Below are positions 780 to 32,800 of a stretch of 64,000 nucleotides of DNA, piece after piece (the stretch's first letter is position 1; each line of letters opens with the position of its first letter). The DNA comes from Devosia soli. Its GTDB lineage: Bacteria; Pseudomonadota; Alphaproteobacteria; Rhizobiales; Devosiaceae. Made by a program: the position numbers and the translations under genes. The stretch is from the NCBI RefSeq assembly GCF_000970455.1, contig NZ_LAJG01000014.1, positions 248,001-312,000 on the forward strand. The letters are read 5' to 3'. The notes under the pieces are model-generated. The model saw only the letters and a list, made by a program, of their open reading frames with translations, was not told the origin of the DNA and did no database searches.

Positions 780-1883
780 TTACGAGATCAGGCGCAGAGC
801 GGTGGTTTCCGACGACTGCATGATCGACAGAGCGGTCGTCGCCATCTGCTGGCGGGTCTGGAGAGCAACGAGGTTCGCAGCTTCCTGATCCATGTCAGCG
901 GCGGTCAATGCCGAAGAGCTGGACTTGAGAATGTCCGACAGCGAAGCGTTGAATTCCTTGCGGGCATTGATGATCGACTGGTTCGAAGAGAACGAGGCGG
1001 CTGTGGCTTCCAGCGTATCGGCAGCGCCGATCAGGGCATCCAGCGAGTCGTTGATGTCATCGTCCGACTGCCATGTATTGGATGCAGCGGTAATGTTGAG
1101 CGACGTCGCGTTCACTGTGGTGCCGTCGATCGTCGTGGACGAAGAACCGTCTTCATTAAGCGCCAGCTTGATTTTGTCACCATTAAGCAGGTTGGTGCCA
1201 TTGATGCCAGCGTCCTTCGCGATCCGGTCGATTTCGGAGCGGAGGGCTTCGAACTGCTTGGACAGGGCCTCACGAGTTGCGTTTTTCGGCGGATTGGTGG
1301 TCCCAGCGGTCAAACCGGTCGCAGTCAGGCCAGTGCCGGTACCGGCAATCGTGATGTCGTCGTTATTGGAACCAGTCAGGGTGAGCTTGCCGTCGACCAA
1401 GGCCGCCTTCACACCGACGTCGGTGTCGGCATTGATGCCGTCGATGACGGTTTGAACAGTGTTGCCGGCTGCGGCGGTGAAGCTGTACGAACCGCTGCCC
1501 GTCGTGATCGTAAGAGTGTCGGCGGCTGTGATGGCCGTTGCGGCAGTGGTCGCAGTGCCAGTCACGGTGGCATTGGTAGCCGAAGAGGTCAGCGCCTGGC
1601 TGGTCAGGCCGCGAGCTTCCTTGATCAGGCCCTGGATGCCCTTGATACCTTCGGAAGCAGCCTTCATCGACGACTGGGCGGCATTGATGTTGTCCATCAG
1701 AGCATCAATCGAAGCAGCGCGGGTATCCATCGAAGAAGCAGTAAAAAACTTCGAGACATTGTCCAGCGGGCTGTTGACGGCCTTGCCGGTAACAAGACGG
1801 CTCTGGGTGGTGGCCATCTGATCTGCGACGTTACGGAGAACGGTGAGACCGGTACGGGCGTTTGCGGAGAGATTGATGCTCAT
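780..1883 (-). CDS. Flagellin (367 aa)
   Basis: This is a structural subunit of the flagellar filament, exported through the flagellar type III apparatus. The N-terminal D0/D1 helices start MSINLSANARTGLTVLRNV and carry the flagellin-typical stretch TTQSRLVTGKAVNSPLDN. The C-terminal helices end in the usual QTRQQMATTALSIMQSSE region. Between them (about residues 104-205) is a Thr/Ala/Gly-rich beta segment of the flagellin IN-motif kind (TLTITTGSGSYSFTAAAGN). AGGAAG lies 8 bp before the ATG. The gene is divergent from a second, much larger flagellin and has its own terminator. Its mRNA leader is a plausible target of the nearby FlbT. Confidence 0.95.
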   Translation of the reverse strand: MSINLSANARTGLTVLRNVADQMATTQSRLVTGKAVNSPLDNVSKFFTASSMDTRAASIDALMDNINAAQSSMKAASEGIKGIQGLIKEARGLTSQALTSSATNATVTGTATTAATAITAADTLTITTGSGSYSFTAAAGNTVQTVIDGINADTDVGVKAALVDGKLTLTGSNNDDITIAGTGTGLTATGLTAGTTNPPKNATREALSKQFEALRSEIDRIAKDAGINGTNLLNGDKIKLALNEDGSSSTTIDGTTVNATSLNITAASNTWQSDDDINDSLDALIGAADTLEATAASFSSNQSIINARKEFNASLSDILKSSSSALTAADMDQEAANLVALQTRQQMATTALSIMQSSETTALRLIS

Positions 1884-2599
1884 TGTTTGGACTTCCTGTT
1901 CCAGAGATTTGTTTTCTTCCGGCGTTTCTTGCCGGCGAGAACAGGTTTAGGGTCCAAACCCTGCGCCCCCCTTCCACGAAAGCGCGCAATTTATTTCAAA
2001 TTTTATCGAATGTCGGCGGAGGCAAATTTGGTCGACTTATCCATCTTCTCAACGCCCCCTCCCCACACGCTAATTTACTCATCCAACCCCGCACGGACGG
2101 TCTGCAGACGACAGTAGCGGGAGGGCCAACCGCGAGGAATCGTCTCCCACGCGCGTTCGGGACTGGCCGCCTTGCGACAAGCGATCAAAAAGGCGCTGCG
2201 AGACCCGTCCGAAAAATTGGCGCCCCGGGACGTCTGTCGTCTCACTTTCAAAAATCATCGAGGCGAAAGACGTCTCGGGGTCCGTCCACTCCTCGCCAAC
2301 CGGAAGCGGCCCGCGCTGTCCGGCGAACTCTGCTGCGCTTAGCCGATTCCCCTGCGCGCACCCCACAGCGCATATCGAAGGGCCCCAAATCCAATCCCGT
2401 AGGTGCGAATATTTAGGTGTCAGAGCGCAGGAACCACCCGGAAAACCCCAGCAAATCCAGGAAAAACCGTGGTGAATGAACGGCTTACGGACAAAGTAAA
2501 GATGTCGCCAATTTAAGAAGTTTTTAGCAAGTCCGGGGCATTCTGCAGGGGTCTCAAGAATTGAGGCAATGCACCACACGTCCAGAAGGAAAACCTAGT
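1884..2599. other. Divergent flagellin control region (no gene)
   Basis: This 716-bp stretch between the two flagellin start codons has no convincing reading frame. It should hold both promoters and both mRNA leaders. In the minus-strand leader, CGCCGG occurs twice 13 bp apart (about 1919-1938). I could not find a clear sigma-28 or sigma-54 core sequence here. The last 120 bp before the large flagellin are AT-rich compared with the surroundings. Confidence 0.6.
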
Positions 2600-5359
2600 A
2601 TGGGTTCCGATGTTTCTCTCTCGAAGGCCGTTCGCTCGAACCTTTTGAGCCTCCAGAATACCGCCTCGATGATGGACAAGACGCAGAACCGTCTTGCCAC
2701 CGGTAACAAGGTGAATTCTGCCCTCGACAATCCGTCGAACTTCTTCACGGCATCGGCGCTCAACAGCCGTGCTGCCGACATGAGCAATCTGCTCGACTCG
2801 ATGGCCTCGGGTATCAAGGTCATCGAAGCCGCCAACAACGGCATCACCGCCCTGACCAAGAACCTGGAATCCATGCAGTCGACCCTGCGCCAGGCCCGTC
2901 AGGACAAGTCCTTCCAGACCAAGTCTTTCGAAGTCAACGATAACACCAAGATCAAGCTTGGCGGCGGTCAGTTCGGCGATCTCGATGCCGACATTAGTCT
3001 TGCTGCAGCGACTGTTGCCGGTACGAAAGCCCAGATCACGACCGACGACGCAACCGCGTACCTGGGTCCGCAGTCCTCCACAGCCACCGCTCAGGGCGCA
3101 GGTGCCCGTTCAGTAATTTCCGGTTTGACTGGCTTCACCACCGGCGACCAATTCACGGTTGCTGGCGTAAACGTCACTGCCGGCGCTGACGTCACCGCTA
3201 CTGGCCTCAAGGCCACTATCGAGACCGCACTGGCTGGCAGCACCTCAACCGCCGGCAAGTACACGGTTTCGGTCGGTACCGGCGACAATGCCAACAAGCT
3301 TATCATCGAGACAGTCGATACTGCCGGCGCAGCTGCAGCCATCAACCTTGATCCCGATAACAACGCCGCAACGGGTGTGAACAACGCCACCAAGGGCGCT
3401 GTTTCGTTCAACTATTCTTCGGTGAGCACTTCGATCACCGCTGGTGGACAGACGATTCCCACCGGCGCGTCCTTCGACGACTTCGTTGCCAACCTGCAGG
3501 CTGGTGCTGAAGCCGGTGGCTACACTGTCGTTTCCGACAGCAGCACCAAGGATATCACGCTCACGAGCACGCAGTGGGGTGGCGCTGTCCCGACCGTTTC
3601 GGGCGTTCCGACCTACGCTGCCGGCACTGCAGCGACGAAGGCAAATACCACCTTCACGCTGAACACGGCCAATGGCGCCCAGAACTTGACCATCGCTGGC
3701 GCCACGGGTCCGATCGCTGTTGCCAGCGGCGCAACTGACGCAACGGTCCTTGCCGCTCTGCAGGCCGACACCAATCTCGCTGCTGCCTACGACATCACCA
3801 GCGACGGCTCGTTCGGTTTCACCCTCACGGCAAAGACTGCCGGTGCTGCCACGGCTGCGACGGTTACCTCCGACAAGACCTATGTTGCAGCCGCAACGGC
3901 GACCGACTCAGGTCCGCTGATGGCGGGTGTAGACTTCACGTCCGCCGGTACGGACCTTCAGGCCTATGCTGGGCAGACGATTTCCGTCGGCGCACAGAGC
4001 TTCACGTTCAACGGCACCGATGACAACGCCACACAGGCAGCAGCTCTGCAAACTGCTCTGCAAGGCGGTGGTAGCGGTCTGACGGTAACCCTCACGAACG
4101 CTGGCTTCTCTATTACGAAGGCAGACGGCACGGACTTCACCATCAACACGAGCGGCACCCTTGGCACCGCTATTGGTGCTACTGCCGGTTCGCTCGCCGT
4201 GACCAATGGTACCCCGGTTTCTTCGGGTCTCAGCGTTGCAGCTGCAGGCACCAACGGCACCGCAGCTGTTGCTGAAGTTGACGGCCTCCAGACTACGACT
4301 GCAACCGCTGCTGGTGCATCGGTTGAAACCGTTGCAGCAGCAGAAAACACCTTCACCGTCTCTTATGACGGCAAGACTGCCGACATTTCGATCGGTGGCG
4401 TGAAGGGTGGTGTGGGTTCGGCGGTAAATGCGCTCGATATCAAGAATTGGCAGGATTCGACCATTGCGGCCGTGAACTCCGATCTTGAAGCTGCTGGCAT
4501 CAACGGTGTCGAAGCCAAGTTCGATGCAGCCGGTAAGTTCCAGCTCGTTGCAAAGACCGCTGAAGCCAAGACCCTGGCTGTGTCGGGCGATGATGCTGTG
4601 TCCCTCTTCGGCACCAACGGTGTGAACACCGGTGTGGCTGAGAAGAGCCAGCTCAACGCGACCAAGACCGTCGATAAGTTCGTCGAACTGATCAACCGCG
4701 ACCATGGCGGCAAGGTTCGTGCTTCGAACGACAACGGCAAGCTGCGTATCGAAAACCTGTCGACCCAGGAACTCGATATCGGTGTCGATCTGAATGGCAA
4801 TGACGCCGTTACCGCCCTCAAGATTGATGGCAACACTGTCCGTGCCAACCTGTCCAAGCAGTTCAACGAACTGCGCGATCAGCTCGACAAGCTGGCTGAT
4901 GACTCGTCCTTCAACGGCATCAACCTGCTCCGTGGCGACAAGCTGAAGATCACCTTCAACGAGTCGGGCACGTCCTCGATCGACATCCAGGCCAAGGATG
5001 CCAACGGTAATGTTCGCGGCATCAACGCTTCGAACCTCAGCGTTGAAAGCCTTGTCGCTGAAGATCTCGACACCGACGAAAAGATCGACGCCTTCCTCGG
5101 CAAGCTGTCTTCGGCTCTGACCGAACTCCGCTCGCAGGCTTCGGCCTTCGGTTCGAACCTGTCGTCTGTCGAAAACCGTCAGTCGTTCACCAAGAACATG
5201 ATCAACACGCTCGAAACCGGCGCGGCGAACCTGACCTTGGCGGACACCAACGAAGAAGCTGCGAACCTTCTGGCTCTCCAGACCCGCCAGCAGCTCTCCT
5301 CGTCGGCTCTGTCGATGGCGTCGCAGCAGGATCAGGCTGTGCTGCAGCTCCTGCGTTAA
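2600..5359 (+). CDS. Giant flagellin (919 aa)
   Basis: This is a flagellar filament protein about two to three times the usual length. Residues 1-110 (MGSDVSLSKAVRSNLLSLQN onward) and about 749-919 (ANLSKQFNELRDQLDKL to the end) are conserved flagellin D0/D1 helices. The roughly 630 residues between them are Thr/Ala/Gly-rich and beta-like, with recurring segments such as QTISVGAQSFTFNG and FDDFVANLQAGAEAGGYTV that resemble flagellin IN modules. The ATG at 2600 was chosen because AAGGA lies 9 bp upstream and the product then begins like other flagellins; an earlier ATG at 2561 adds 13 unconserved residues. It is followed by a terminator, then flbT and flaF on the same strand. The insert would lie on the outer filament surface. 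Confidence 0.93.
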   Translation: MGSDVSLSKAVRSNLLSLQNTASMMDKTQNRLATGNKVNSALDNPSNFFTASALNSRAADMSNLLDSMASGIKVIEAANNGITALTKNLESMQSTLRQARQDKSFQTKSFEVNDNTKIKLGGGQFGDLDADISLAAATVAGTKAQITTDDATAYLGPQSSTATAQGAGARSVISGLTGFTTGDQFTVAGVNVTAGADVTATGLKATIETALAGSTSTAGKYTVSVGTGDNANKLIIETVDTAGAAAAINLDPDNNAATGVNNATKGAVSFNYSSVSTSITAGGQTIPTGASFDDFVANLQAGAEAGGYTVVSDSSTKDITLTSTQWGGAVPTVSGVPTYAAGTAATKANTTFTLNTANGAQNLTIAGATGPIAVASGATDATVLAALQADTNLAAAYDITSDGSFGFTLTAKTAGAATAATVTSDKTYVAAATATDSGPLMAGVDFTSAGTDLQAYAGQTISVGAQSFTFNGTDDNATQAAALQTALQGGGSGLTVTLTNAGFSITKADGTDFTINTSGTLGTAIGATAGSLAVTNGTPVSSGLSVAAAGTNGTAAVAEVDGLQTTTATAAGASVETVAAAENTFTVSYDGKTADISIGGVKGGVGSAVNALDIKNWQDSTIAAVNSDLEAAGINGVEAKFDAAGKFQLVAKTAEAKTLAVSGDDAVSLFGTNGVNTGVAEKSQLNATKTVDKFVELINRDHGGKVRASNDNGKLRIENLSTQELDIGVDLNGNDAVTALKIDGNTVRANLSKQFNELRDQLDKLADDSSFNGINLLRGDKLKITFNESGTSSIDIQAKDANGNVRGINASNLSVESLVAEDLDTDEKIDAFLGKLSSALTELRSQASAFGSNLSSVENRQSFTKNMINTLETGAANLTLADTNEEAANLLALQTRQQLSSSALSMASQQDQAVLQLLR

Positions 5360-5383
5360 TCGCTGGCGTCATAACGAAAAATG

Positions 5384-5415
5384 GAAGGCGGGCCACAAGC
5401 CCGCCTTCTTGTTTT
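5384..5415 (+). terminator. Terminator of the giant flagellin gene
   Basis: A 10-bp perfect stem (5384-5393 with 5399-5408) with a CACAA loop is followed by TTGTTTT. It separates the flagellin transcript from flbT. Confidence 0.85.
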
Positions 5416-5535
5416 GGCTGAGCTGCATCGAGGATTCGTTCCCCGCTCGCATCGCCAGGGTGTATGCTCAATGCGAACTTCCCACCCAAGCCCGCCAAAA
5501 GACCGGCGGCATTCCCAGAATAGGAAACACAACCG

Positions 5536-5973
5536 ATGTCTCTCAAAGTCGAACTCAAGCCCGGCGAGCGCCTGATCATCGGTGGCTGCATCATTACCAA
5601 TTCCGACCAGCGGACACGGCTTTTCATCGATGGCAAGGCCCCGATTCTGCGCGAAAAGGACATCCTGACGATCGCGACGGCCGATACGCCGGCCAAGCGC
5701 ATCTATCTGGCGGTACAGCTCATGTACCTGGCAGATGACACAACCGGACTGACCGAAGAATATTTCAGGCTTGTCAATGAGATAATCCAGGCGGCGCCCT
5801 CGATGATCACGCTGATCAACGCGATCAACAACGAGATTTTAACCGGCGCCCTGTACAAAGCTCTCAAGGCAGCCCGCAAGTTAATTCAGTACGAACAGGA
5901 CCTTCTTGCAAATGTACCATCAGGGAGCGCAGGCCTACCAGCAGGTGGCCCGCAAAACGGAAGCCCCGCGTGA
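5536..5973 (+). CDS. flbT: Flagellin translational regulator FlbT (145 aa)
   Basis: FlbT is a small alphaproteobacterial protein that acts on the 5' leader of flagellin mRNA; in Caulobacter it represses translation until the hook is complete. The whole sequence fits the family: an N-terminal beta-rich part (LKVELKPGERLIIGGCIITN) followed by helices around YLAVQLMYLADD and the C-terminal YKALKAARKLIQYEQDLL. AGGAAA lies 8 bp before the ATG. The 3' end overlaps flaF by 62 bp in another frame, so the two are probably translationally coupled, consistent with their opposing, paired roles in flagellin synthesis. Confidence 0.93.
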   Translation: MSLKVELKPGERLIIGGCIITNSDQRTRLFIDGKAPILREKDILTIATADTPAKRIYLAVQLMYLADDTTGLTEEYFRLVNEIIQAAPSMITLINAINNEILTGALYKALKAARKLIQYEQDLLANVPSGSAGLPAGGPQNGSPA

Positions 5974-6292
5974 TCGCGAAGCAAATCTGCTATCGCGGGC
6001 GGCTGCCAATCTCCAGCTTATCCACGATGCCTGGGAGCTGAAGCAGGATAGCCTGAACGAGGCACTTCTCTTCAACCGTCGCATCTGGAACATCTTCCTC
6101 ACCTCGGTTACCCGCGAGGATAACCCTCTTCCCGCACAGGTCCGCCAGAACATCGCCAATCTCGGCCTATTCGTCATGAACGAGACCCGCGAGCTCCACA
6201 TGGAGCCGATCAAGGCCAAGCTGCTGCCGCTGATCAACATCAACCGGCAGCTTGCCGCCGGTCTGCGCGGTTCTGAAGAAGCCGCCGCCTGA
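5912..6292 (+). CDS. flaF: Flagellin synthesis facilitator FlaF (126 aa)
   Basis: FlaF is an alphaproteobacterial regulator required for flagellin production and secretion that antagonises FlbT. The sequence is helical and matches the family from MYHQGAQAYQQVARKTEAP to the C-terminal NRQLAAGLRG. I start it at the ATG at 5912, because it gives the typical MY-start of the family and has AGGA 11 bp upstream; an in-frame TTG two codons earlier is less likely. It begins inside flbT and ends before a hairpin terminator, so flbT-flaF form a two-gene unit. Confidence 0.92.
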   Translation: MYHQGAQAYQQVARKTEAPRDREANLLSRAAANLQLIHDAWELKQDSLNEALLFNRRIWNIFLTSVTREDNPLPAQVRQNIANLGLFVMNETRELHMEPIKAKLLPLININRQLAAGLRGSEEAAA

Positions 6293-6330
6293 AGAACTCT
6301 TCAATACCGTCGCCTCGACGCGACACAACG

Positions 6331-6363
6331 AGCCTCCGGACCAAACCGGAGGCTTTCGTGTTT
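6331..6363 (+). terminator. Terminator of flbT-flaF
   Basis: Stem AGCCTCCGG (6331-6339) pairs with CCGGAGGCT (6346-6354). A T-rich tail follows. Confidence 0.75.
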
Positions 6364-6402
6364 CTGGGGTGAGAACAACAGGAGCGGTAGCAGCAACCGC
6401 GC

Positions 6403-6431
6403 AAAATGAAACGGGGCGCTTTCGCGCCCCG
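6403..6431 (-). terminator. Terminator of flgE-flgK-flgL
   Basis: The stem 6412-6419 with 6424-6431 has a TTTC loop. On the minus strand the stem is followed by a T-rich stretch. It lies about 40 bp past the flgL stop. Confidence 0.75.
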
Positions 6432-6473
6432 CTCTCATTCCGGCCTTCTGGCCTCTCCGCGCCTTCTGGCGGC

Positions 6474-8687
6474 TTACTTCAGGTAATTGACCAAGCTCAG
6501 ATTAGCCACGCTCGCCGTCGTCTGATAGCTGGCCTCGAGACGCGTCTTGAGCGCCAGAAGCTGCATGGCCGTTTCTTCCATGCTCACCGTCTCGACTTCG
6601 CTCAGCAGCGTCTCGATCTGACCGGCAAAGGCGGTGTTCCGCTCCTTCGCTCCGCCGACCGTCGCGCGTACCACGCCAAGTTCGAGACCGATCTGCTCGA
6701 CCGAGCCCTCGTGGGTTGCCGTGGAACTCGAGGTCGCCGCCATCTGCTTTTCGACCATGGCACTGAAGCGCGCCTTGGAGGTGCTATCGTTGATGTCGTA
6801 TTCCTGGCTGCTCATAGCGGCCAGCGTCTTGACCAGTTCGCGAAGTCCGGATTCGTTGGCGCGAACGCCATAGCCAACCTTGGTCGAGTCATCGACAGAC
6901 GCCGTGGCCGAGCGGCGGGGATTGTCTCCGGCCGCGCCCACTTCGCCGACATACCACTTTACCGTATCGCGAGTGCCCGGATTGGCGAAGACGGTTGCCG
7001 TTTCCGGGTCGCCACCGGTCATGTCGATGCGGCGCGCGACGCCGTCCGTGGTGAAGAAGTCGTCGGCCGCGGCATAGCTCGATGCGGCAACGAGATCGGT
7101 CTTGCTCGTCTGATCGAGCTGGATCTTGAGGGCCGCCTCGAAATTGGCTGCGGTCTCTTCCTTGTTGGCGCCGATCACGAACTGGCCGGTTGCCGGCTGC
7201 CGATCGACCGCCTGCAGGGTCATGGCCTTGCTCGTGCCGTCGGGCATTGTCAGGTTGATCGTCACGGATTCACCGGCCCGCGGCACGCCCATGAATTCGA
7301 CCGTCATGTTGGCCGGATTGCCGGCGACAGCGCTGACATTAATCCGGCTGCTGGTGGTCGACGCAGAGGCAAGCTTGTAGCCAAAAACAGTAGGCGGAGA
7401 CTGTTCCGCGATGCGCACCTTCTCGGGCGTCACCGCATCCACACCAGCCTCAAGCCTACCCGTCTTGATCGGCGCTTCGAGGCCGCCAAGATGGGCCTTG
7501 AGCGCGCCCTGAAGGTTTTTGAGGGTTTCTTCACGGCTCACACCGATCTGGTATTCCTTGGGGTTCGCAGCGGGGTCTGGCGTACCGGCGACGGCCTTAA
7601 AGGCGTAGTCGGTCGTTACACCCGTCTCGGCGTTCTTGATACCGATGGTGATGGTTTCACCATCAATCGGCTGCGTCTGGAACTTCACCGATACGGCCTT
7701 CATGCCATCGGAATAGCCGATGACCTTTACGTCGGCATCCGAGGACAGGAACTGCTTGAAATTGTCGAGATTGCCAAGCTTCTGTCCCATCAGATTTTCG
7801 AGGTTCTTGGCGGTATCTTCGAGCGTCGCGCCGATGGAATATTCGGGCGGCGTAGCCGAACTGTCCGGCACGCTCGGCGCAGCGACGGCCTTGGCCGTCA
7901 GCGTCTGCGTAGTGCCGTCGCGGCGGGTCATGTTGAACGTGACCAATTCGCCATCGAGCGGCTGGGTCGAAACCTGCACGGTGGGCGCCAGCGGGTCCGC
8001 CGTCGGGCCCATGGTCTGGGTCGAATCCGAATTGCCAGAGATCGAGGTGATCGAATAGCCGAAGCGCTCGAACTCGGCGGAAGAAAGAACGAGGTTGTTC
8101 TTCCATGGGCCAGTGATGGTCGTGCGTGGCAGCCCCACATTGGAGAGCGTATCCGAGGAATCCTTACCAAGGTCGGCCTTGCGGCGTTCTTCGGCGCCCC
8201 TTAGATAGCCGTCCGAGGTGCCATCCCCGTTCATGATCTGGTCGTAGGTGGCAACCGGTGCAGTCTCGGTCTTGTTGCCCCCCATCAGGTAGCGGCCGGC
8301 AACGCTCAGGTTCAGCGTTTCGAGCAACTGCGAAAGACGGTTCTGCGAGTCTTTCTGCAGGCTCACCATGGTGAGATTGTTTTCGCCATAGCTGGTCGGA
8401 GTAGCCGAAGTGCGGGTCTCTGACTTCAGCTTGCTCAGCGAAGTGAAGGCCTGGTCGAGGAAGTTGAGGCGCAGGTTCACCGTGTCGATATTGGCCGCAA
8501 AGGAATCTAGCTTGGTCAGCCGATTGCGCGAGGCCAGAGACACGGTCCGGTCGAACCCCATCTCCGAGAGCGTCTCGGCCTTCTGACCACTGCCCAGCTG
8601 GGTTTGAAGCTTTCCAAGTTGGGCCTGCATGGTCGAGATAGCGCTGTAGCCTGCCTTGACCGGATACATGGACTTATTGATCAGCAT
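6474..8687 (-). CDS. flgL: Flagellar hook-filament junction protein FlgL, enlarged (737 aa)
   Basis: FlgL sits between FlgK and the filament. The flagellin-like N-terminus (residues 1-135, with MQAQLGKLQTQLGSGQKAET) and C-terminus (about 640-737, ending ASYQTTASVANLSLVNYLK) are typical. The centre is not: three modules of about 65-70 residues follow one another at roughly 237-305, 332-400 and 461-525. Each has a strand pair around DGE.VTF or GESVTI, then a KAV or QAV turn, then EY.IG or QFVIG and an EETxxNL helix. Usual FlgL proteins are about 300-400 aa. AGGAG lies 8 bp before the ATG, and flgK ends 13 bp upstream, so both are co-transcribed. Confidence 0.9.
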   Translation of the reverse strand: MLINKSMYPVKAGYSAISTMQAQLGKLQTQLGSGQKAETLSEMGFDRTVSLASRNRLTKLDSFAANIDTVNLRLNFLDQAFTSLSKLKSETRTSATPTSYGENNLTMVSLQKDSQNRLSQLLETLNLSVAGRYLMGGNKTETAPVATYDQIMNGDGTSDGYLRGAEERRKADLGKDSSDTLSNVGLPRTTITGPWKNNLVLSSAEFERFGYSITSISGNSDSTQTMGPTADPLAPTVQVSTQPLDGELVTFNMTRRDGTTQTLTAKAVAAPSVPDSSATPPEYSIGATLEDTAKNLENLMGQKLGNLDNFKQFLSSDADVKVIGYSDGMKAVSVKFQTQPIDGETITIGIKNAETGVTTDYAFKAVAGTPDPAANPKEYQIGVSREETLKNLQGALKAHLGGLEAPIKTGRLEAGVDAVTPEKVRIAEQSPPTVFGYKLASASTTSSRINVSAVAGNPANMTVEFMGVPRAGESVTINLTMPDGTSKAMTLQAVDRQPATGQFVIGANKEETAANFEAALKIQLDQTSKTDLVAASSYAAADDFFTTDGVARRIDMTGGDPETATVFANPGTRDTVKWYVGEVGAAGDNPRRSATASVDDSTKVGYGVRANESGLRELVKTLAAMSSQEYDINDSTSKARFSAMVEKQMAATSSSTATHEGSVEQIGLELGVVRATVGGAKERNTAFAGQIETLLSEVETVSMEETAMQLLALKTRLEASYQTTASVANLSLVNYLK

Positions 8688-8700
8688 TGGTCAGGCTCCT

Positions 8701-10572
8701 TTAGGTGAACGACTGCATGAGGGTATCGAGCAATTCCTGCACGACGGACGCGACACGCGCATTGGCAGCATAGGCGTTCTGCAACTCCATAAGGCGCGCG
8801 ACTTCTTCGTTGATATCGACGCCATAGCTTTCATCCATGCGCGACGTGATCGCATCGAGTGTCTGGGTATTAGTCTGGCTGGTGGCGAGCGCAGTCTGGA
8901 TGGCGCTCCCCTGATACTCCATCACCTGGGAGACCATGTCGGTCAGCGAGCCCGATAGACGGAAGCCGCCGCTCTTGGTGCCGACCATGGTGTTCGAGCC
9001 GAAGCGCATGGTCTCGAACTGCTCGACAAGATAATCGACGCGCTTGCTATCGCCCGAAGCGGTAGTAGCCGTGTAATTCACCAAGGTCTTGTTGTCGGTC
9101 ACGACGCCCGGATTGACGACGATGCGGCCGGCAAAGCCGAGACGCTGACCGTTGCCACCCAAAGAATTGGTGAAAGCCTTGTTGCCATCGGAGTCGATAA
9201 AAAGCGGCATGCCGAGCGCGCCTGATGCGCTGGTCAGCTCATCGGCCGTCCAGCGGGTCATCGCCGAAACCGGCGTACTATTACCATTGCCGCGGATCGA
9301 AAGGTTCGCTCCAGACCCCGAGAAGCTGGGACCATAGGCCAAAGCGCTGTTGAGCGTGCTGGTGACAAAATTCATGTCGACCGTGCCAGCGGGACCGGTC
9401 CCTGCAAGGCGCAGGCCGACAACCTGATTACCGAAGCTGTCCGGGCTTTGAAGCGGCAGCTTGGACTCGTCGTCGACCCGAACGATGCGTGCGGTCCGCT
9501 CGACGCCGTCTTCGCCGCGATACTTGATCATCGCGTCGTCGCCGTCCTTGAGCTTGCTCAGGTCGATATCGTAGCCGGACGGCGGGCCGCTGATGGCCGT
9601 GCCCGGCTCCTGCACCGTCGAAAAGACCTGCGACAGCGCGGCGGCAACGTCGTCGAGCTGCTTTTGCGCATCCTGCAGGGTCACGTCGCGCATTTCGATC
9701 AGGGCGCCGAGCGTGCCGGTGCGAATCGCGCCTTCCTTGACCAGATCGACCTTGGTGCCATTCGGCGTTTCGAGGATGAACTTGCCGACGCCGCTCTGCT
9801 GGTCGTCGACGTTGAATTCGCTCGTCGGGGTCAGGGAGCCCGACTGCCCGAAGCGGACCACCGAAGGCTTGACGTCAATCAACGACGTACCGGACTTGGT
9901 CGAAAGACGCACGGTGCCATCGGGATTGTAGTCGACGCGAACGTCCATCATTTCCGAAATGCCGGAAACGATGCGGTCGCGCTGGTCGAGAAGGCTGTTG
10001 CGCGTGTTGTTGTCGACGCCGTAATCGGCCAGGACGAGGTTCACGTCGCGCAGCGAACCCAGCATCGAGTTAATCTGATCGACTGAGGACGCCATCCGCG
10101 TCTCGGTTTCGCGGCGCATGGCCTGCACTTCGAGCGAGAGGCGGTTGAGCGTATTGGCCATGTCGGTGGCCTTGGTCACGACATCAGCTCGCGTGGCATA
10201 ATTGTCGGGGCTCGTCCCAAGGGCATCGAGCGCGTTCTGCAGGGCGCCGAGCGAGGAGTCGAGCGAGCCGGCAGTACCGGGCTTGCCGAGCGCTGTCTGC
10301 AGCCGGTCCATGAAGGTCGCGCGCGTCGAGGAATACGCGGTCTCGGGAACTTGCTTGGTGTAATAATTCTGAAGGATGGAGTCGAAGGCGCGCTCGACGG
10401 TGCCGGCGCGGACATAGGAGTTGTCGCCGCGACCGACTTCCAGCGCGTTCAGCGTCTGCTTGTGATAGCCGGGGGTACCGGCATTCGAAATGTTGCGGGA
10501 TATGACTTCCAGCGCCGTCTGGCTGGCCTTGAGGCCCGAAAGTGCATTCCCGATCGCTACTGTCAAACCCAT
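8701..10572 (-). CDS. flgK: Flagellar hook-associated protein FlgK (623 aa)
   Basis: FlgK is the first hook-filament junction protein, capping the hook under FlgL. The N-terminus has the rod/hook family signature (ALEVISRNISNAGTPGYHKQ, near residues 20-40). The C-terminus (NEEVARLMELQNAYAANARV, near 590) matches the flagellar basal body/hook C-terminal domain. A long coiled-coil region spans about 140-220. Its length is close to normal, unlike FlgE and FlgL on either side. GGAG precedes the ATG. It lies between flgE and flgL on the minus strand, 212 bp from flgE, and that gap contains stable hairpins. Confidence 0.94.
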   Translation of the reverse strand: MGLTVAIGNALSGLKASQTALEVISRNISNAGTPGYHKQTLNALEVGRGDNSYVRAGTVERAFDSILQNYYTKQVPETAYSSTRATFMDRLQTALGKPGTAGSLDSSLGALQNALDALGTSPDNYATRADVVTKATDMANTLNRLSLEVQAMRRETETRMASSVDQINSMLGSLRDVNLVLADYGVDNNTRNSLLDQRDRIVSGISEMMDVRVDYNPDGTVRLSTKSGTSLIDVKPSVVRFGQSGSLTPTSEFNVDDQQSGVGKFILETPNGTKVDLVKEGAIRTGTLGALIEMRDVTLQDAQKQLDDVAAALSQVFSTVQEPGTAISGPPSGYDIDLSKLKDGDDAMIKYRGEDGVERTARIVRVDDESKLPLQSPDSFGNQVVGLRLAGTGPAGTVDMNFVTSTLNSALAYGPSFSGSGANLSIRGNGNSTPVSAMTRWTADELTSASGALGMPLFIDSDGNKAFTNSLGGNGQRLGFAGRIVVNPGVVTDNKTLVNYTATTASGDSKRVDYLVEQFETMRFGSNTMVGTKSGGFRLSGSLTDMVSQVMEYQGSAIQTALATSQTNTQTLDAITSRMDESYGVDINEEVARLMELQNAYAANARVASVVQELLDTLMQSFT

Positions 10573-10648
10573 TGCGGGTCTCCTTTGGCGCCGCGCCCCT
10601 CCCCGTCCCTAAGGACGGCGACCGCGCGAAGAATCTGAGAAACGGCGA

Positions 10649-10747
10649 GTCCCGGCGCGAGCGCCGGGACCATGAAGAAAAAGGGAATGTTGCTCAGTCG
10701 CCTGCCCAGGCGAGGCATTGACCGGCCAGACAGCCCGAAAGGCCGGT
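10649..10747 (-). other. Hairpins between flgE and flgK
   Basis: Two GC-rich stem-loops lie in the 212-bp gap: 10649-10657 with 10662-10670 (loop CGAG), and ACCGGCC 10721-10727 with GGCCGGT 10741-10747. Neither has a clean T-run in the direction of transcription, so they look more like partial terminators or mRNA-end stabilisers than full stops. They could lower flgK-flgL expression relative to the abundant hook protein. Confidence 0.45.
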
Positions 10748-10784
10748 AGGTGAATGAGCGACATTCCAAAAGCATCGGAGAACC

Positions 10785-13502
10785 TCAGCGGATCATGTTG
10801 AGGGCTTCTTTGAGCATCTCGTCAGCCGCCGTCACGATCTTGGTATTGGCTGAATAGGCCTGCTGGGTGACGATCAGCTTCGTGAATTCTTCCGAAATGT
10901 CGGTGTTGGAGGCTTCGGTAGAGCTCCCCACGATGCCAGCGCCGGACTGGTCGATGATCGGCTCTCCCGATTCAGTCGTGGCAGTGTAGGTGCCGCCGTC
11001 GCCGCGCTTGAGGGCATTGGCGTTGTTGAAGCTCGCCGTCACGATCTGCGCAACTTCGCGGGTTTCACCATTGGTGTACGAGGCGACGACGCGGCCCTCG
11101 TCGGAAATACCGACCGAGATGAATTCGCCGGCGCCAAAGCCGTTCTGCTTGAGCGCGGTGGTGCTGGCCGCACCGCTATTGTCGGCGAACTGCGTCATGC
11201 CCTTGAGGCCATGGTTGATGCTGATCTGGCCGAGAGACGTGCCGTTGACGGTCAGATTGCTGACGGTCAGCTGCTCGGTGCCGGTCGCCGTGGCCACGCC
11301 ACCTGCGGGCGCGATGCCGCTGAGGACGCCATTGTCATACGTGTAGTCAGCGAGCTTCGTCCAGGCGACAGAAGCGCCAGGACGGCTGTCGGAGGCGTAG
11401 AAGAGGCCCCAGGTTTCGTTGCCAGTGGTGCTGGTCATCTTTGCCCAGCGCATCTGCACGTTCACCGGCTCGCCGGTGTTCGAATAGAGCGTGATTCCGC
11501 CGCCCGAGATGGATTCGGAGACGAAGCGATCCGAGTCGGCCGAAAGGATATTGTCCACCGAACCGGAGGTCGCGTTGTAGCTTCCGGCGATATCGAGCTT
11601 GGCGGGGCCAGCGGCATTGCCGGAGATCATGACGTTCTGGGTGTAGTTGCCCGGGAAGGTCACGCTCAGGCGGCCGCCGACCATGTCGACGTCGACATTG
11701 GCTGCGCCCGGTCCACCATTGGCCTTGAGGTCGGCCTCGATGGACGCCAGCATATCGGCAACCGTGCCAGTCGCGTTGATGCGCGTTTCACCGGCCCCTA
11801 CCGCGAGCGAACCCGAAGTGTCGAGACGATAGGTGCGCGTGGTGCTGCCGACCTGGATCGAGAGCGTATCGCCATGGTCGATCAGGAGGCTAGCAAGCGT
11901 ATTGGTCGGCTTGACGTCGACGCCTGCCGCAGTGTCCGTGGTCAGGCTAAGGCCCAGAGCGTCGCCGCTGATGGAGCCGACCCGATCGGTGGTGAAGGAA
12001 AGCGACTGCGTGCTGGCATCGCCCATGACGACGGCGACGCGGCCATTGCGGATACCAACGGTCATGCCGGCGTCGCCGGTCAGGGCGCGCAGCTTGGTCT
12101 CCATATCGGCGAGCATCGTGGTGATGTTCCCATTGGCAGCCACTTCCGTGCCGGAGCCGGTCACCGTGGTATCGGCAACGCGAGCGCCGGCAGGATAGGT
12201 AATGGTCAGCTGACCGGTAACGGCGTCATAGGCGGCGGTTGCCGGAGCGATGGCGGTGTTCACCGAGGCCTGGAAGTCTGCCGGAGTGATTAGACCGGTT
12301 GCAGGCAGGATGGTGACGGAAGTGCCGTTGATATTGAAATTGCCAGCGGCGCGAAGGTTGGCGAGTTCTTCCTTCGGCACGGTGACGACGGTCATGGCTG
12401 ATGTCGCCAGGGTACCGGCACGGGTGCCCGGAGCATTGAGAGCGGTGCCGGCACCAGCAACCGACGTTTCTGCCGGAGATGCGCCGGCGGGATAGTCGAT
12501 GACCAACGATGCACCGGTGAGCACGGCAGAACCAGCGGGCAGCCCCAAAGCCGTTTCGATCGCCGACTGGAACTGAGCGTCCGTTGTGACGCCGGCGAGC
12601 GGAATGGCCGTCGAGCCGATGACGAAATCATCTGCAGTGACGAGTGCAGCGCGGCTTGCAACATCGATTGTGGTGCGCTTGGCGACTGCCGCGTTGCCCC
12701 CAGTAGCGCTTGTAAGCGTTGCCGCCGGCGTGGAAACGCCGTTGGTATTGAAGCGAATGCCGTAGGTAATGCCCCCAACGGTGACGTTCAGGCGGTCATT
12801 GTCCGTGACAATCGTATTGGCGGCAGCCGTGCCGTTGACCGTCGCGCCGAAAGCATAAGCCGGCGTTGTGGCAGGCAGCGTCGCGCCAGAACCGCTCGGG
12901 GTCTTGGGGAAAGACGGCGAGCCCTGGACGTTGGAATAGTTCCACGGCTTGAAGAGTTCGCTCCCCGGTGTCGTCGACACGTAGGACGAGGTTTTTGGAA
13001 CCTGCGGCAGGTTGAGCTGATAGTCGATGGTGGTCGAGCGGCGCGCCGGAAGGAACGAGTTGTCGATCTTGATGGCTTCGGCGACCGAACCAGTCACGAC
13101 CCCATTGTTCATGCCAAGGCCGGTCAAGCGATAGCCCGCACCGTTGACGAGGTAACCGTTGCGATCGATGTCGAAGTCGCCGCGACGAGTATAGAAGGTG
13201 CCGCCCGAGCCATCACCCTTTTCGGTGACGAAGAATCCATTGCCGTTAAGGGCCATATAAGTTTCGGTGTCGGCGTTCTGGATGTCGCCGCGCAGCGTGT
13301 TCATCGAGCGCGAATAGGAGGAGACCGCACCAGCAATCTGCTGCTTGACGGGCGCGTCGGGGATCATGTCGACAAAGCTGGTATCGATCCGCTTATAGCC
13401 GATGGTCTGCGAATTGGCGATGTTGCCGGAGATGTTCTCCATGGCATGCGACTGGGCCTTGAGGCCGGACACCGCACTTTGAAGAGCGCCAAAAATACCC
13501 AT
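10785..13502 (-). CDS. flgE: Flagellar hook protein FlgE, enlarged (905 aa)
   Basis: FlgE is the hook subunit. The N-terminal rod/hook signature (HAMENISGNIANSQTIGYKR, near residues 19-38), the TYMALNGNGFFV and GGTFYTRRGDF motifs (80-112) and the C-terminal EFTKLIVTQQAYSANTKIV are all present. Typical FlgE is about 400 aa; here about residues 180-650 form a Thr/Ala/Gly-rich insert. It includes two clear repeats at about 291-362 and 387-457 (both contain an ALV/FNI strand, a DFQAS or QFQSA helix and YPAGA) and a looser third at 544-630. GGAG lies 5 bp before the ATG. A sigma-54-like promoter lies about 55 bp upstream. Confidence 0.92.
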   Translation of the reverse strand: MGIFGALQSAVSGLKAQSHAMENISGNIANSQTIGYKRIDTSFVDMIPDAPVKQQIAGAVSSYSRSMNTLRGDIQNADTETYMALNGNGFFVTEKGDGSGGTFYTRRGDFDIDRNGYLVNGAGYRLTGLGMNNGVVTGSVAEAIKIDNSFLPARRSTTIDYQLNLPQVPKTSSYVSTTPGSELFKPWNYSNVQGSPSFPKTPSGSGATLPATTPAYAFGATVNGTAAANTIVTDNDRLNVTVGGITYGIRFNTNGVSTPAATLTSATGGNAAVAKRTTIDVASRAALVTADDFVIGSTAIPLAGVTTDAQFQSAIETALGLPAGSAVLTGASLVIDYPAGASPAETSVAGAGTALNAPGTRAGTLATSAMTVVTVPKEELANLRAAGNFNINGTSVTILPATGLITPADFQASVNTAIAPATAAYDAVTGQLTITYPAGARVADTTVTGSGTEVAANGNITTMLADMETKLRALTGDAGMTVGIRNGRVAVVMGDASTQSLSFTTDRVGSISGDALGLSLTTDTAAGVDVKPTNTLASLLIDHGDTLSIQVGSTTRTYRLDTSGSLAVGAGETRINATGTVADMLASIEADLKANGGPGAANVDVDMVGGRLSVTFPGNYTQNVMISGNAAGPAKLDIAGSYNATSGSVDNILSADSDRFVSESISGGGITLYSNTGEPVNVQMRWAKMTSTTGNETWGLFYASDSRPGASVAWTKLADYTYDNGVLSGIAPAGGVATATGTEQLTVSNLTVNGTSLGQISINHGLKGMTQFADNSGAASTTALKQNGFGAGEFISVGISDEGRVVASYTNGETREVAQIVTASFNNANALKRGDGGTYTATTESGEPIIDQSGAGIVGSSTEASNTDISEEFTKLIVTQQAYSANTKIVTAADEMLKEALNMIR

Positions 13503-29882: not shown

Positions 29883-32800
29883 ATGGCCAATAATCAGAAT
29901 AACCAGAACGATCCGGCGGCGCTGGCCTTTTCTGCGGTAGAAGACGCTCTCAAGGATTCGGTGTTCAGCCTCGATCCGGCCAACCGCGCCAAGACTGAGA
30001 AGAAGCCCGAGCAGCCCCGCTCCGAACGTTTACGCGCTGCCGATAAGATCGCGCAGCAGGCCGGCTCCGTCGCCAATGACGATCGCGCCTCCGCTGCACG
30101 GCTTCTCTATGGTCTACAGAATCGCTCCTCCGCCGCGCCCACCTGGCTTGCCCTACTCCTCTCGCTCCTCTGGGTCGGCGTCGCCGGCACTGTGGGCGCA
30201 GTGCGTTATGGCGCGCAGATGGCCAATTTCGGTCAGTTCGCCGGCACGATCGAATTCATCTCTCTAGTCGCCATTATCGTTCTGCCGGTCCTCGGCTTCT
30301 TTGCTGTCGCGACGCTGATCCGTCGCGCGCAAGATCTGCGCAATGCTGCCTCCTCCATCACCCAGGCCGCTATCCGCCTCGCCGAGCCTGAAGTGACTGC
30401 CGCTGATAAGGTCGCTTCCGTGGGCCAAGCCGTGCGCCGCGAAGTCAATGCTCTCGGCGATGGCCTCGAACGCGCGCTCTCCCGCGCCGGCGAGCTCGAA
30501 GTGATGATCCATAACGAGGTCACCGCGCTCGAACGCACCTATTCGGACAACGAGTCGCGCATGCGCGCCCTCATCGCCGAACTCGCCAACCAGCGCGAGA
30601 GCGTTCTCACCAATACCGAGCGCGTGCGCGAAGCGATCACCGAGAGCCACACCGGCCTCGTCTTCGACCTCGACATGATCAGCCAGCGCATCGCTGGCAC
30701 CATCGTCGAAAGCGGCGGCAATCTCGCCCGCGCTCTCGAAAGCGGTGGCGAAGCGATCAATGCCTCCTTCTCGGAACGCGCTGATAACTTTGCCCAGTTG
30801 ATGGACAATCGCACCACCGATTTTCTCAGCGCGCTCGATGAAAGCGCCGGCCGCGTCTCCGGCGTCGTCGAAGACAGTACCGCCTTGGTCAATTCGAGCT
30901 TTGAGAATCGTACCCGCGACTTCCAGGCCAATATCGAACGTCATATCGAAAGCCTGACCGAGGCGCTCGATGCCCGCGCCGGCACAATCGGCTCTTCGCT
31001 CGATAGCCAGACGCTGATGCTGACAGCCGCCATCCAGGACAAGACTGATGCGCTTGCCAATCTCCTGGCCATCAATTCGACCAAGCTTATCGAGCAGTGG
31101 GGTCAGCGCGGTGATCTGATCAACCGTGCGCTTGAGGATCTCGGTAGCCGTGTGGGCGAAGACGTCACCGGTCGCGCTCGCGAGGCCGAAACCATGCTGA
31201 GCCAGCTCTCGCGCCAGCTCGATGAGTCGGTGTCGATCCAGCTCAACGCTCTCGAAAGCCGCCTCCAGTCGGCGATCATCGAAATCAACGGCGCTCTCGA
31301 CGATACCGCCGAGCGTGCGCGCGTCACCGTTTCGACCGCGGGCCAGGAGTCGCTCGGTCAGTTCGATACGCGTCTCACCGAAATCACCGGCCTCCTCGAT
31401 GAACGTCTGTCGGCGCTCGACAACGTCATCGGCGACAAGGGCGACCAGCTGCTCAACCGCCTCGACCAGCACGGCACGAGCTTCCAGACGCGCGCCAACG
31501 TCCTCGAAATGGCGCTCAACGAAGAGTCCGGCCGCTTCAACGATATCGTTTCCGAGCGCACGCGCGAGATGAACGAGGTCATCGGGGCCAAGGCCGCTGC
31601 CATCACCGAGAGCCTGACCAATCGCACCCGCGACATTTCCGAACGTCTCGACACCTACGCCGAGAGCCTCGGTGAAACGCTCGATTCACGCACGAGCCGG
31701 ATCGACGAAGTTCTGACGAGCCGTTCCGAAACGCTCGCTAACCGCCTCGATAGCTATGTTGGCGCAATCGATACGAGCCTCGATAGCCGCACGGCCCGCA
31801 TCGACGACGTCCTCTCGAACCGGTCGCAATCGCTGACCACGCGTCTGGACTCCTATGCCGAAACGCTCAATCTCGACCTCGACAGCCGCACAAGTCAGAT
31901 CGACGAGGTCCTGACGAGCCGTTCCGAGACCTTGGCAAACCGCCTCGATAGCCACGCGGAGACACTTCGCAGCGATCTCGACGGCAGGACCAATCAGATC
32001 GACCAAGTGCTGACCAGCCGGTCCCAGACCCTGGCAGACCGCCTCGACACGCATGCCGAGACACTCCGCGGCGATCTCGACAGCCGGACCAATCAGATCG
32101 ATCAGGTCCTGCTCAACCGGTCACAGACCTTGGCGAACCGCCTCGATTCCTATGCCGAGACGCTGAACCTCGATCTCGAAGGCCGCGCCGGCCAGATCGA
32201 AGAAGTGCTCGCAAGCCGCGTCGGCGAGATCGGCAATGCCATCGCCGCGGGTGCGGAGGCGCTCGAAAACACCCTGTCCGGCCGCAGCGTCGAACTGTCC
32301 GAAGCCATCCGTCAGCGTTCGCAAGAACTCGGCCAGACGCTCACCACCAGCACCCAGGCGTTCGACCAGGCCATTGCCGGCCGCACCCAGCGCCTCGCCG
32401 ATACTCTTTCGGAGCGAACCAACACGCTTTCGCTCGAAATCGAAAGCCGCACCGGTGCACTTTCGGGCCAGCTCGAAGAGCGCACGCAGACCCTCGCGGC
32501 AACGCTCGACGAAAAGCAGAGCGAATTTGCCGCTGCGCTTGATCAGCGCCAAGGCGTTTTCGCCTCGGCCATCGAAGAACGCGCCGGCCGCTTCGTTGCC
32601 GATCTCGAAGCGCGCACCGCCACAATGGCGGGCGCTCTCGATACCCGCACGAGCGAACTCAACGCTTCCTTCGAGCGCCAGACCGGCGCCCTCTCCGAAG
32701 CCATCTCGCGCGAAGGCGCCGCCCTCACCGAAGCGCTCGACGCACGCACCCAGGAACTCGCCTCGACCGTCGGCACTCGCACACAGCAGCTGTCCGCCGC

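What the first reader, a model, noticed from the sequence alone, without database searches (positions are those of the whole stretch)
780..13502. Parallel module expansion in flagellin, FlgL and FlgE of one cluster
Three axial proteins built from different genes carry the same style of Thr/Ala-rich beta modules, while FlgK stays normal. This suggests a shared selective pressure such as an outer sheath, adhesion or phage/predator shielding, or exchange of a module between these genes. I know of no named system for this.
Basis: inference. Interest (0 to 1): 0.65.

Follow-up and report, generated by a model that had tools for sequence, protein, structure and literature searches.

The report
Shared outer modules in flagellar axial proteins
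In this Devosia bacterium the flagellar filament, junction and hook proteins have grown by adding small outer modules, and across its order (Hyphomicrobiales) the same modules have repeatedly been copied from one of these genes into another, which suggests one source for the extremely variable surface of bacterial flagella.

Summary
In a Devosia genome the flagellins (367 and 919 aa), FlgL (737 aa) and FlgE (905 aa) carry large outer inserts between conserved ends, while FlgK (623 aa) is ordinary. FlgL holds three copies of an order-wide FlgL module with no significant similarity to the FlgE or flagellin inserts. FlgE and flagellin modules are related to each other through relatives, and the flaA module scores above Pfam's cut-off for Flagellin_IN. 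Across about 196 Hyphomicrobiales clusters, lengths move in steps of roughly 80-150 aa while FlgK stays near 620 aa. Exchange between genes is direct in relatives: FlgE and FlgL inserts are 72% identical over 208 aa within one cluster (75% at DNA level), the tree forces at least two separate moves of an FlgE-type module into FlgL in Bradyrhizobium and kin, and FlgE-flagellin, FlgL-flagellin and FlgK-flagellin matches occur. Reversed-sequence controls give nothing below 1e-4. FlgE length covaries with flagellin length after phylogenetic correction; FlgL does so only weakly. Coupled outer-domain growth is known from Campylobacter. Copying modules between axial genes was not found in the papers searched. 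Function (thicker, reinforced or re-surfaced flagella) is inferred.

The parts
780..1883 (-). flaA, short flagellin (367 aa)
   Evidence: Pfam Flagellin_N 2e-11, Flagellin_C 4e-5
1311..1571 (-). flaA outer module (residues 105-191); Flagellin_IN match at 1365-1517
   Evidence: PF07196 24.7 bits against cut-off 22.7; own-family HMM 1e-19; 39% identity over 94 aa to a Pelagibacterium FlgE module
2600..5359 (+). flaB, large flagellin (919 aa)
   Evidence: Flagellin_N 2e-14, Flagellin_C 4e-10; start codon ATG 2600
2930..4864 (+). flaB outer region (residues 111-755); the last conserved module is residues 614-755 (4439-4864)
   Evidence: HMM 2e-41 for residues 614-755; flaA and flaB module profiles match at 96% probability
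6474..8687 (-). FlgL, hook-filament junction protein (737 aa)
   Evidence: NCBIfam FlgL families; AF2 model pLDDT 84; FlgL structures rank among the top fold matches, Z up to 18.7
7758..8003 (-). FlgL module 1 (residues 229-310)
   Evidence: FlgL-module HMM 4e-19
7476..7706 (-). FlgL module 2 (residues 328-404)
   Evidence: FlgL-module HMM 6e-18
7050..7325 (-). FlgL module 3 (residues 455-546), the copy kept in the whole order
   Evidence: HMM 1e-35; aligned single copy in other families
8701..10572 (-). FlgK, hook-filament junction protein, ordinary length (623 aa)
   Evidence: FlgK_D1 3e-42, TIGR02492 4e-77; length at the order's norm
10785..13502 (-). FlgE, hook protein (905 aa)
   Evidence: FlgE families 4e-75; hook structures
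12717..12857 (-). FlgE module 1, first half (residues 216-262)
   Evidence: aligned to the unsplit module of Devosia sp. Root685; matching half found by HMM in L067 and L073
12426..12671 (-). FlgE module 2 (residues 278-359), nested inside module 1
   Evidence: HMM 5e-30
12129..12383 (-). FlgE module 3 (residues 374-458), nested inside module 1
   Evidence: HMM 8e-33
11982..12128 (-). FlgE module 1, second half (about residues 459-507)
   Evidence: HMM 1e-10, model positions 33-97
11616..11900 (-). FlgE module 4 (residues 535-629)
   Evidence: HMM 4e-28; the family also occurs in a flagellin of L059 (1e-10)

Best explanation
The inserts are outer-surface modules of about 80-120 aa, hung between the conserved D0/D1 parts that assemble the flagellum. 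In Hyphomicrobiales they behave as cassettes that spread in three ways: tandem duplication inside one gene (FlgL, three copies here), insertion of one module into a loop of another (FlgE modules 2 and 3 inside module 1), and copying between different axial genes (FlgE to FlgL or flagellin, flagellin and FlgK), followed by replacement between species. The cores do the export and assembly, so extra modules are tolerated and project outward. The most likely use is mechanical and surface-related: thicker hook and filament with extra subunit-subunit contacts, matched between hook and filament. Shown: module anatomy, step-wise lengths, cross-gene copies in relatives, hook-filament covariation. Inferred: the recombination route, the direction of some copies, and the function.
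For: Step-wise lengths with FlgK constant. Cross-gene matches at E<1e-8: 107 FlgE-FlgL pairs, 150 FlgE-flagellin, 8 FlgL-flagellin, 5 FlgK-flagellin; best reversed-sequence hit 1e-4; most remain with SEG masking. Same-cluster copies: L139 FlgE/FlgL 72% over 208 aa and 75% DNA over 660 bp, while its nearest relative in the set (FlgK 60%) has base-length genes; L184 59% over 271 aa and 67% DNA over 833 bp, absent from the FlgL of an 87%-FlgK relative in its two-module form; L146 66% over 118 aa; L171 FlgE/flagellin 51% over 197 aa. The tree forces at least two separate moves of the module into FlgL. Nested FlgE architecture in the window, Leaf420, L067 and L073. FlgE insert 43% identical to Root685 while the cores are 79-92%. 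FlgE-flagellin length contrasts r 0.43-0.48, rank permutation P 0.001-0.004. Modules under purifying selection, dN/dS 0.05-0.15 against Leaf420.
Against: In the window itself no module is shared between FlgL and the other two, so FlgL growth here needs only duplication. FlgL triplication is older than the FlgE growth: L041 and L042 have FlgL of 738 and 721 aa but FlgE of 455 and 444 aa. The FlgE-flagellin correlation weakens without its three largest contrasts (r 0.17-0.32). No flagellum of this organism has been imaged. The FlgE model is only moderate (pLDDT 71).
Confidence: 0.68

Rival explanations
1. Each gene grew on its own: FlgL by tandem duplication of its own D2 module, FlgE and flagellin by separate gains. 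The likeness is convergence on a common fold, with no exchange.
For: FlgL modules form their own family. FlgL growth predates FlgE growth in this clade. FlgL length contrasts correlate only weakly with the others.
Against: It cannot explain 72% protein and 75% DNA identity between FlgE and FlgL inserts in one cluster, nor the Bradyrhizobium and Pseudolabrys-type cases, nor FlgE-type modules in flagellins of L059 and L067.
Confidence: 0.2
2. Surface diversification: phages, predators or plant immunity that recognise flagella favour frequent replacement of the exposed modules; length is a by-product.
For: The modules change faster than the cores, and whole inserts are replaced between close species (FlgE insert 43% against core 79-92%). 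Such selection is the usual explanation for flagellin variable regions (PMC7018530).
Against: dN/dS of the modules between close species is low (0.05-0.15), so no positive selection was seen. The hook and the junction are small targets compared with the filament. No phage test was possible.
Confidence: 0.35
3. Mechanical or viscosity adaptation with matched hook, junction and filament diameter.
For: FlgE and flagellin lengths covary after phylogenetic correction. In Campylobacter extra FlgE domains go with a very long FlgL and a remodelled FlgK, and were linked to the swimming environment (PMC5069557, PMC5691160).
Against: FlgL and FlgK barely covary with the others. FlgK stays ordinary here although it sits between FlgE and FlgL.
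Confidence: 0.45
4. The modules form an adhesive coat or outer sheath.
For: Thr/Ala/Gly-rich beta modules with almost no Cys or Trp in FlgE and flagellin.
Against: No Pfam adhesin or sheath domain was found in the modules, and a search of the rest of the genome with the FlgE modules found no copy outside the flagellar genes.
Confidence: 0.1

Closest known systems
Flagellin hook IN motif (Pfam PF07196, Flagellin_IN)
   Same: The window flaA module scores 24.7 bits against a cut-off of 22.7; a Pseudolabrys-like flagellin (L171) scores 28.6 and the matching FlgE 22.3 bits, just under the cut-off. Same strand-strand-helix-strand-strand pattern around a central IN.
   Different: Window FlgE and FlgL modules do not reach the family's cut-off; the FlgL modules show no sequence link to it.
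Campylobacter enlarged hook and junction (FlgE D3/D4, FlgL 750-950 aa, divergent FlgK)
   Same: Coupled growth of outer domains in several axial proteins with a conserved core; long FlgL (PMC5691160, PMC5069557, PMC12221982).
   Different: The Campylobacter FlgE D3/D4 domains were reported as having no match in the PDB; copying of a module between genes is not described there. FlgK stays ordinary in the Devosia window.
Giant flagellins with tandem DE regions (Oceanospirillales)
   Same: Outer region enlarged by tandem duplication of a domain (PMC6248924).
   Different: Only flagellin is described there; here hook and junction proteins are enlarged as well and modules cross between genes.
Flagellin hypervariable regions (HVR) acquired by horizontal transfer
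   Same: Exposed central region replaced while the ends stay conserved (PMC7018530).
   Different: That work concludes that HVRs come from outside, with donors not yet sequenced; here sources can be seen in neighbouring hook and junction genes.
D2 domains shared by FlgL and FlgK (Xanthomonas FlgL)
   Same: Related outer domains in two different axial proteins (PMC6155364).
   Different: That is a structural likeness; here sequence identity is 50-75% between genes of one genome in relatives.

Membership tests
Flagellin_IN (PF07196) | Score above the Pfam gathering cut-off of 22.7 bits | tested here: met
   Met for the flaA module only, 24.7 bits; the proteins' own Pfam scan did not list it at E up to 1
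Flagellin_IN (PF07196) | FlgE and FlgL modules of the window score above the cut-off | tested here: not met
   No PF07196 match in FlgE or FlgL
Shared module family between FlgE and flagellin | A profile of one gene's modules significantly finds the other gene, above reversed and shuffled controls | tested here: met
   FlgE_m4 finds an L059 flagellin at 1e-10, FlgE_m23 an L067 flagellin at 8e-7; control best 0.005-0.02
Shared module family between FlgL and the other two in the window | The FlgL-module profile finds FlgE or flagellin inserts above controls | tested here: not met
   Best other-gene hit 2e-4 against a reversed control of 9e-5 to 2e-4; hhalign at most 38% probability
Exchange of modules between axial genes (in the order) | High identity between inserts of different genes of one genome, absent from close relatives | tested here: met
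   L139, L184 and the Bradyrhizobium-type clusters
FliD D2-D3 / phage-sheath-like fold for FlgE module 1 | Structural match that stands above unrelated rows | tested here: inconclusive
   Z 8.4 to a phage E217 sheath and 7.2 to E. coli FliD D2-D3 for residues 212-526, on a model with pLDDT 71
Giant flagellin (>1000 aa) | Length above 1000 aa | tested here: not met
   919 aa in the window, 779 aa at the second locus

The most novel reading that the evidence does not exclude
In Hyphomicrobiales the exposed parts of hook, junction and filament proteins draw on one shared, interchangeable pool of modules that is copied between these genes within a genome, so that hook and junction genes are donors of new flagellin surfaces and the reverse.
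Probability: 0.5. Interest if true: 0.68.

Novelty: new variant of a known kind. Interest (0 to 1): 0.52.

Why it matters
Flagellin variable regions are among the most diverse protein segments known, and the large survey of them found no donors for new forms (PMC7018530). Copies of the same module in hook, junction and filament genes of one cluster point to an origin next door, and give natural series (FlgE 455, 590, 705, 905 aa; FlgL 500, 630-660, 737 aa with FlgK unchanged) to test how outer domains change hook and filament mechanics and recognition by phages.

Tried and rejected
A first iterated profile from the flaA module seemed to hit 25 FlgL proteins. On inspection it had drifted onto the FlgL helical core after including a hit at E 0.0016; this was discarded and replaced by within-gene profiles with reversed and shuffled controls. 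Tandem DNA repeats inside the flagellar genes: none found, so the duplications are old at DNA level. Modules elsewhere in the genome: a 369-aa query covering FlgE modules 2-4 found nothing outside FlgE (its first five residues were mistyped and did not align). A phage search with FlgL modules failed through a wrong reading frame and was not repeated. The FlgL model against viral structures gave no match at E below 0.001, and the FlgL sequence had no significant solved relative by phmmer. No positive selection was seen in the modules. No paper on copying of modules between axial genes was found in nine searches of an open-access library, which is not proof of absence.
Full report
WHAT IS THERE. 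The window lies in a Devosia genome (order Hyphomicrobiales; closest named relative Devosia sp. Leaf420, FlgK 92% identical). The cluster holds flaA (367 aa), flaB (919 aa from ATG 2600), FlbT, FlaF, FlgL (737 aa), FlgK (623 aa) and FlgE (905 aa). A second large flagellin (779 aa) lies on another contig. All the enlarged proteins keep ordinary conserved ends; the extra length sits in the middle.

IS THE ENLARGEMENT UNUSUAL. I fetched flagellar clusters of about 196 Hyphomicrobiales genomes. Base lengths are FlgE 441-470, FlgL 494-514 and FlgK 597-632 aa, and lengths move in steps rather than smoothly: FlgE near 455, 590, 660, 705, 750 and 905; FlgL near 500, 540, 630-660 and 730. The window is near the top for FlgE (maximum 915), in the highest group for FlgL (a few reach 797 and 919), and near the top for flagellin (maximum 956). 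FlgK is constant except in eight loci at 713-863 aa, so 'FlgK stays normal' is a tendency and not a rule.

ANATOMY IN THE WINDOW. FlgL has three copies (residues 229-310, 328-404, 455-546) of a module present once in most other FlgL of the order; the copies are 26-36% identical. FlgE has an unsplit module 4 (535-629) and a module 1 of the same family that is cut in two by two modules of a second family (278-359, 374-458). The same nested arrangement occurs in Leaf420 and in two distant Devosia (L067; L073 with one inner module), while closer relatives have unsplit module 1 (705-709 aa), one module (582 aa) or none (444-455 aa). Between the window and Root685 the FlgE cores are 79-92% identical but the insert only 43%, so the insert was replaced, not merely lengthened. 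FlgL triplication is shared by the whole clade, also where FlgE has no insert (L041, L042), so the growth was not simultaneous.

I built profiles from the modules of each gene separately and searched the other genes with reversed and shuffled controls. The FlgL profile finds only FlgL; two flagellin hits at 2e-4 equal the reversed control. The FlgE module-4 profile finds a flagellin of L059 at 1e-10, the FlgE module-2/3 profile a flagellin of L067 at 8e-7. The flaA module matches a Pelagibacterium FlgE at 39% over 94 aa. Profile-profile comparison gives 96% probability for flaA against flaB, and at most 38% for FlgL against anything else. So in this window FlgE and flagellin modules are kin, and FlgL's are not detectably so. 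An earlier iterated profile that seemed to include FlgL had drifted and was discarded.

EXCHANGE IN RELATIVES. Searching all outer regions against each other gives 107 FlgE-FlgL, 150 FlgE-flagellin, 8 FlgL-flagellin and 5 FlgK-flagellin pairs at E<1e-8; the best reversed-sequence hit is 1e-4, and 99, 90, 8 and 1 pairs remain with SEG masking. In L139 (a Hyphomicrobiales MAG) FlgE 252-455 and FlgL 210-417 are 72% identical (DNA 75% over 660 bp), while its nearest relative in the set has base-length FlgE and FlgL. In Bradyrhizobium and kin, seven FlgL carry one extra module 50-68% identical to the FlgE module of the same clusters, and L184 carries two in both genes (59% over 271 aa), although a relative with 87% identical FlgK has only one in FlgL; the module tree forces at least two moves. 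A Pseudolabrys-like flagellin (L171) matches FlgE of its own cluster (51% over 197 aa), a Hansschlegelia flagellin matches Bradyrhizobium FlgE and FlgL (about 50%), and one FlgK (L059) matches a flagellin (46% over 145 aa). Several of these genomes are isolates, so misassembly is unlikely as a general explanation.

DO THE PROTEINS GROW TOGETHER. Independent contrasts on an FlgK tree (126 clusters) give r 0.43-0.48 between FlgE and largest flagellin length (rank permutation P 0.001-0.004), falling to 0.17-0.32 without the three largest contrasts. FlgL correlates weakly with either (rank P 0.015-0.07); FlgK shows no stable relation. Only flagellins inside the fetched stretch were counted.

STRUCTURE. 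The FlgL model is good (pLDDT 84) and its top matches are known FlgL structures. Its modules follow strands, helix, strands. The FlgE model is moderate (71); split module 1 aligns with a phage sheath domain (Z 8.4) and FliD D2-D3 (7.2), and module 3 with a Sphingomonas-type cell-surface flagellin (about 5). These are leads, not proof of a common fold. The flaA module passes the Flagellin_IN cut-off.

SELECTION. Against Leaf420, module dN/dS is 0.05-0.15, low though often above the cores: the modules are maintained, functional parts and not decaying filler.

WHAT IT MEANS. Best reading: outer modules are cassettes that duplicate within a gene, insert into each other and are copied between axial genes, tolerated because assembly depends on the conserved ends. 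The use is inferred: thicker, reinforced and re-surfaced hooks and filaments. Coupled outer-domain growth is known in Campylobacter (PMC5691160, PMC5069557, PMC12221982), tandem outer repeats in giant flagellins (PMC6248924), and like D2 domains in FlgL and FlgK (PMC6155364). What I did not find described is module copying between hook, junction and filament genes; the large flagellin survey found no donors for new variable regions (PMC7018530).

Noticed in passing
L008 5813-8224 (contig C15 of the same genome): A second large flagellin (779 aa) outside the cluster; its ends are 94% and 91% identical to flaB but its outer region only 39-55%, as if the ends were homogenised and the outer part exchanged.
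   Followed up: partly
whole genome: No FliD_N (filament cap) match in the genome, although E. coli and B. subtilis controls ring; Caulobacter also does not ring.
   Followed up: no
window 2600-5359 against L082 and L080: flaB outer region is closer to Devosia sp. Root685 (86%) than to Leaf420 (80%), although FlgK says the opposite (80% against 92%): a sign of replacement between species.
   Followed up: partly
window 29883-35756, repeats at 31855-32179: A 1957-aa open frame with a 99-bp (33-aa) tandem repeat of coiled-coil-like sequence.
   Followed up: no
L225 FlgL (919 aa): A FlgL with what look like repeated Flagellin_IN-like stretches, the longest FlgL seen in the set.
   Followed up: no
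L231 and L232: FlgK of 863 and 857 aa, the longest in the sample; the source of the extra part was not examined.
   Followed up: no
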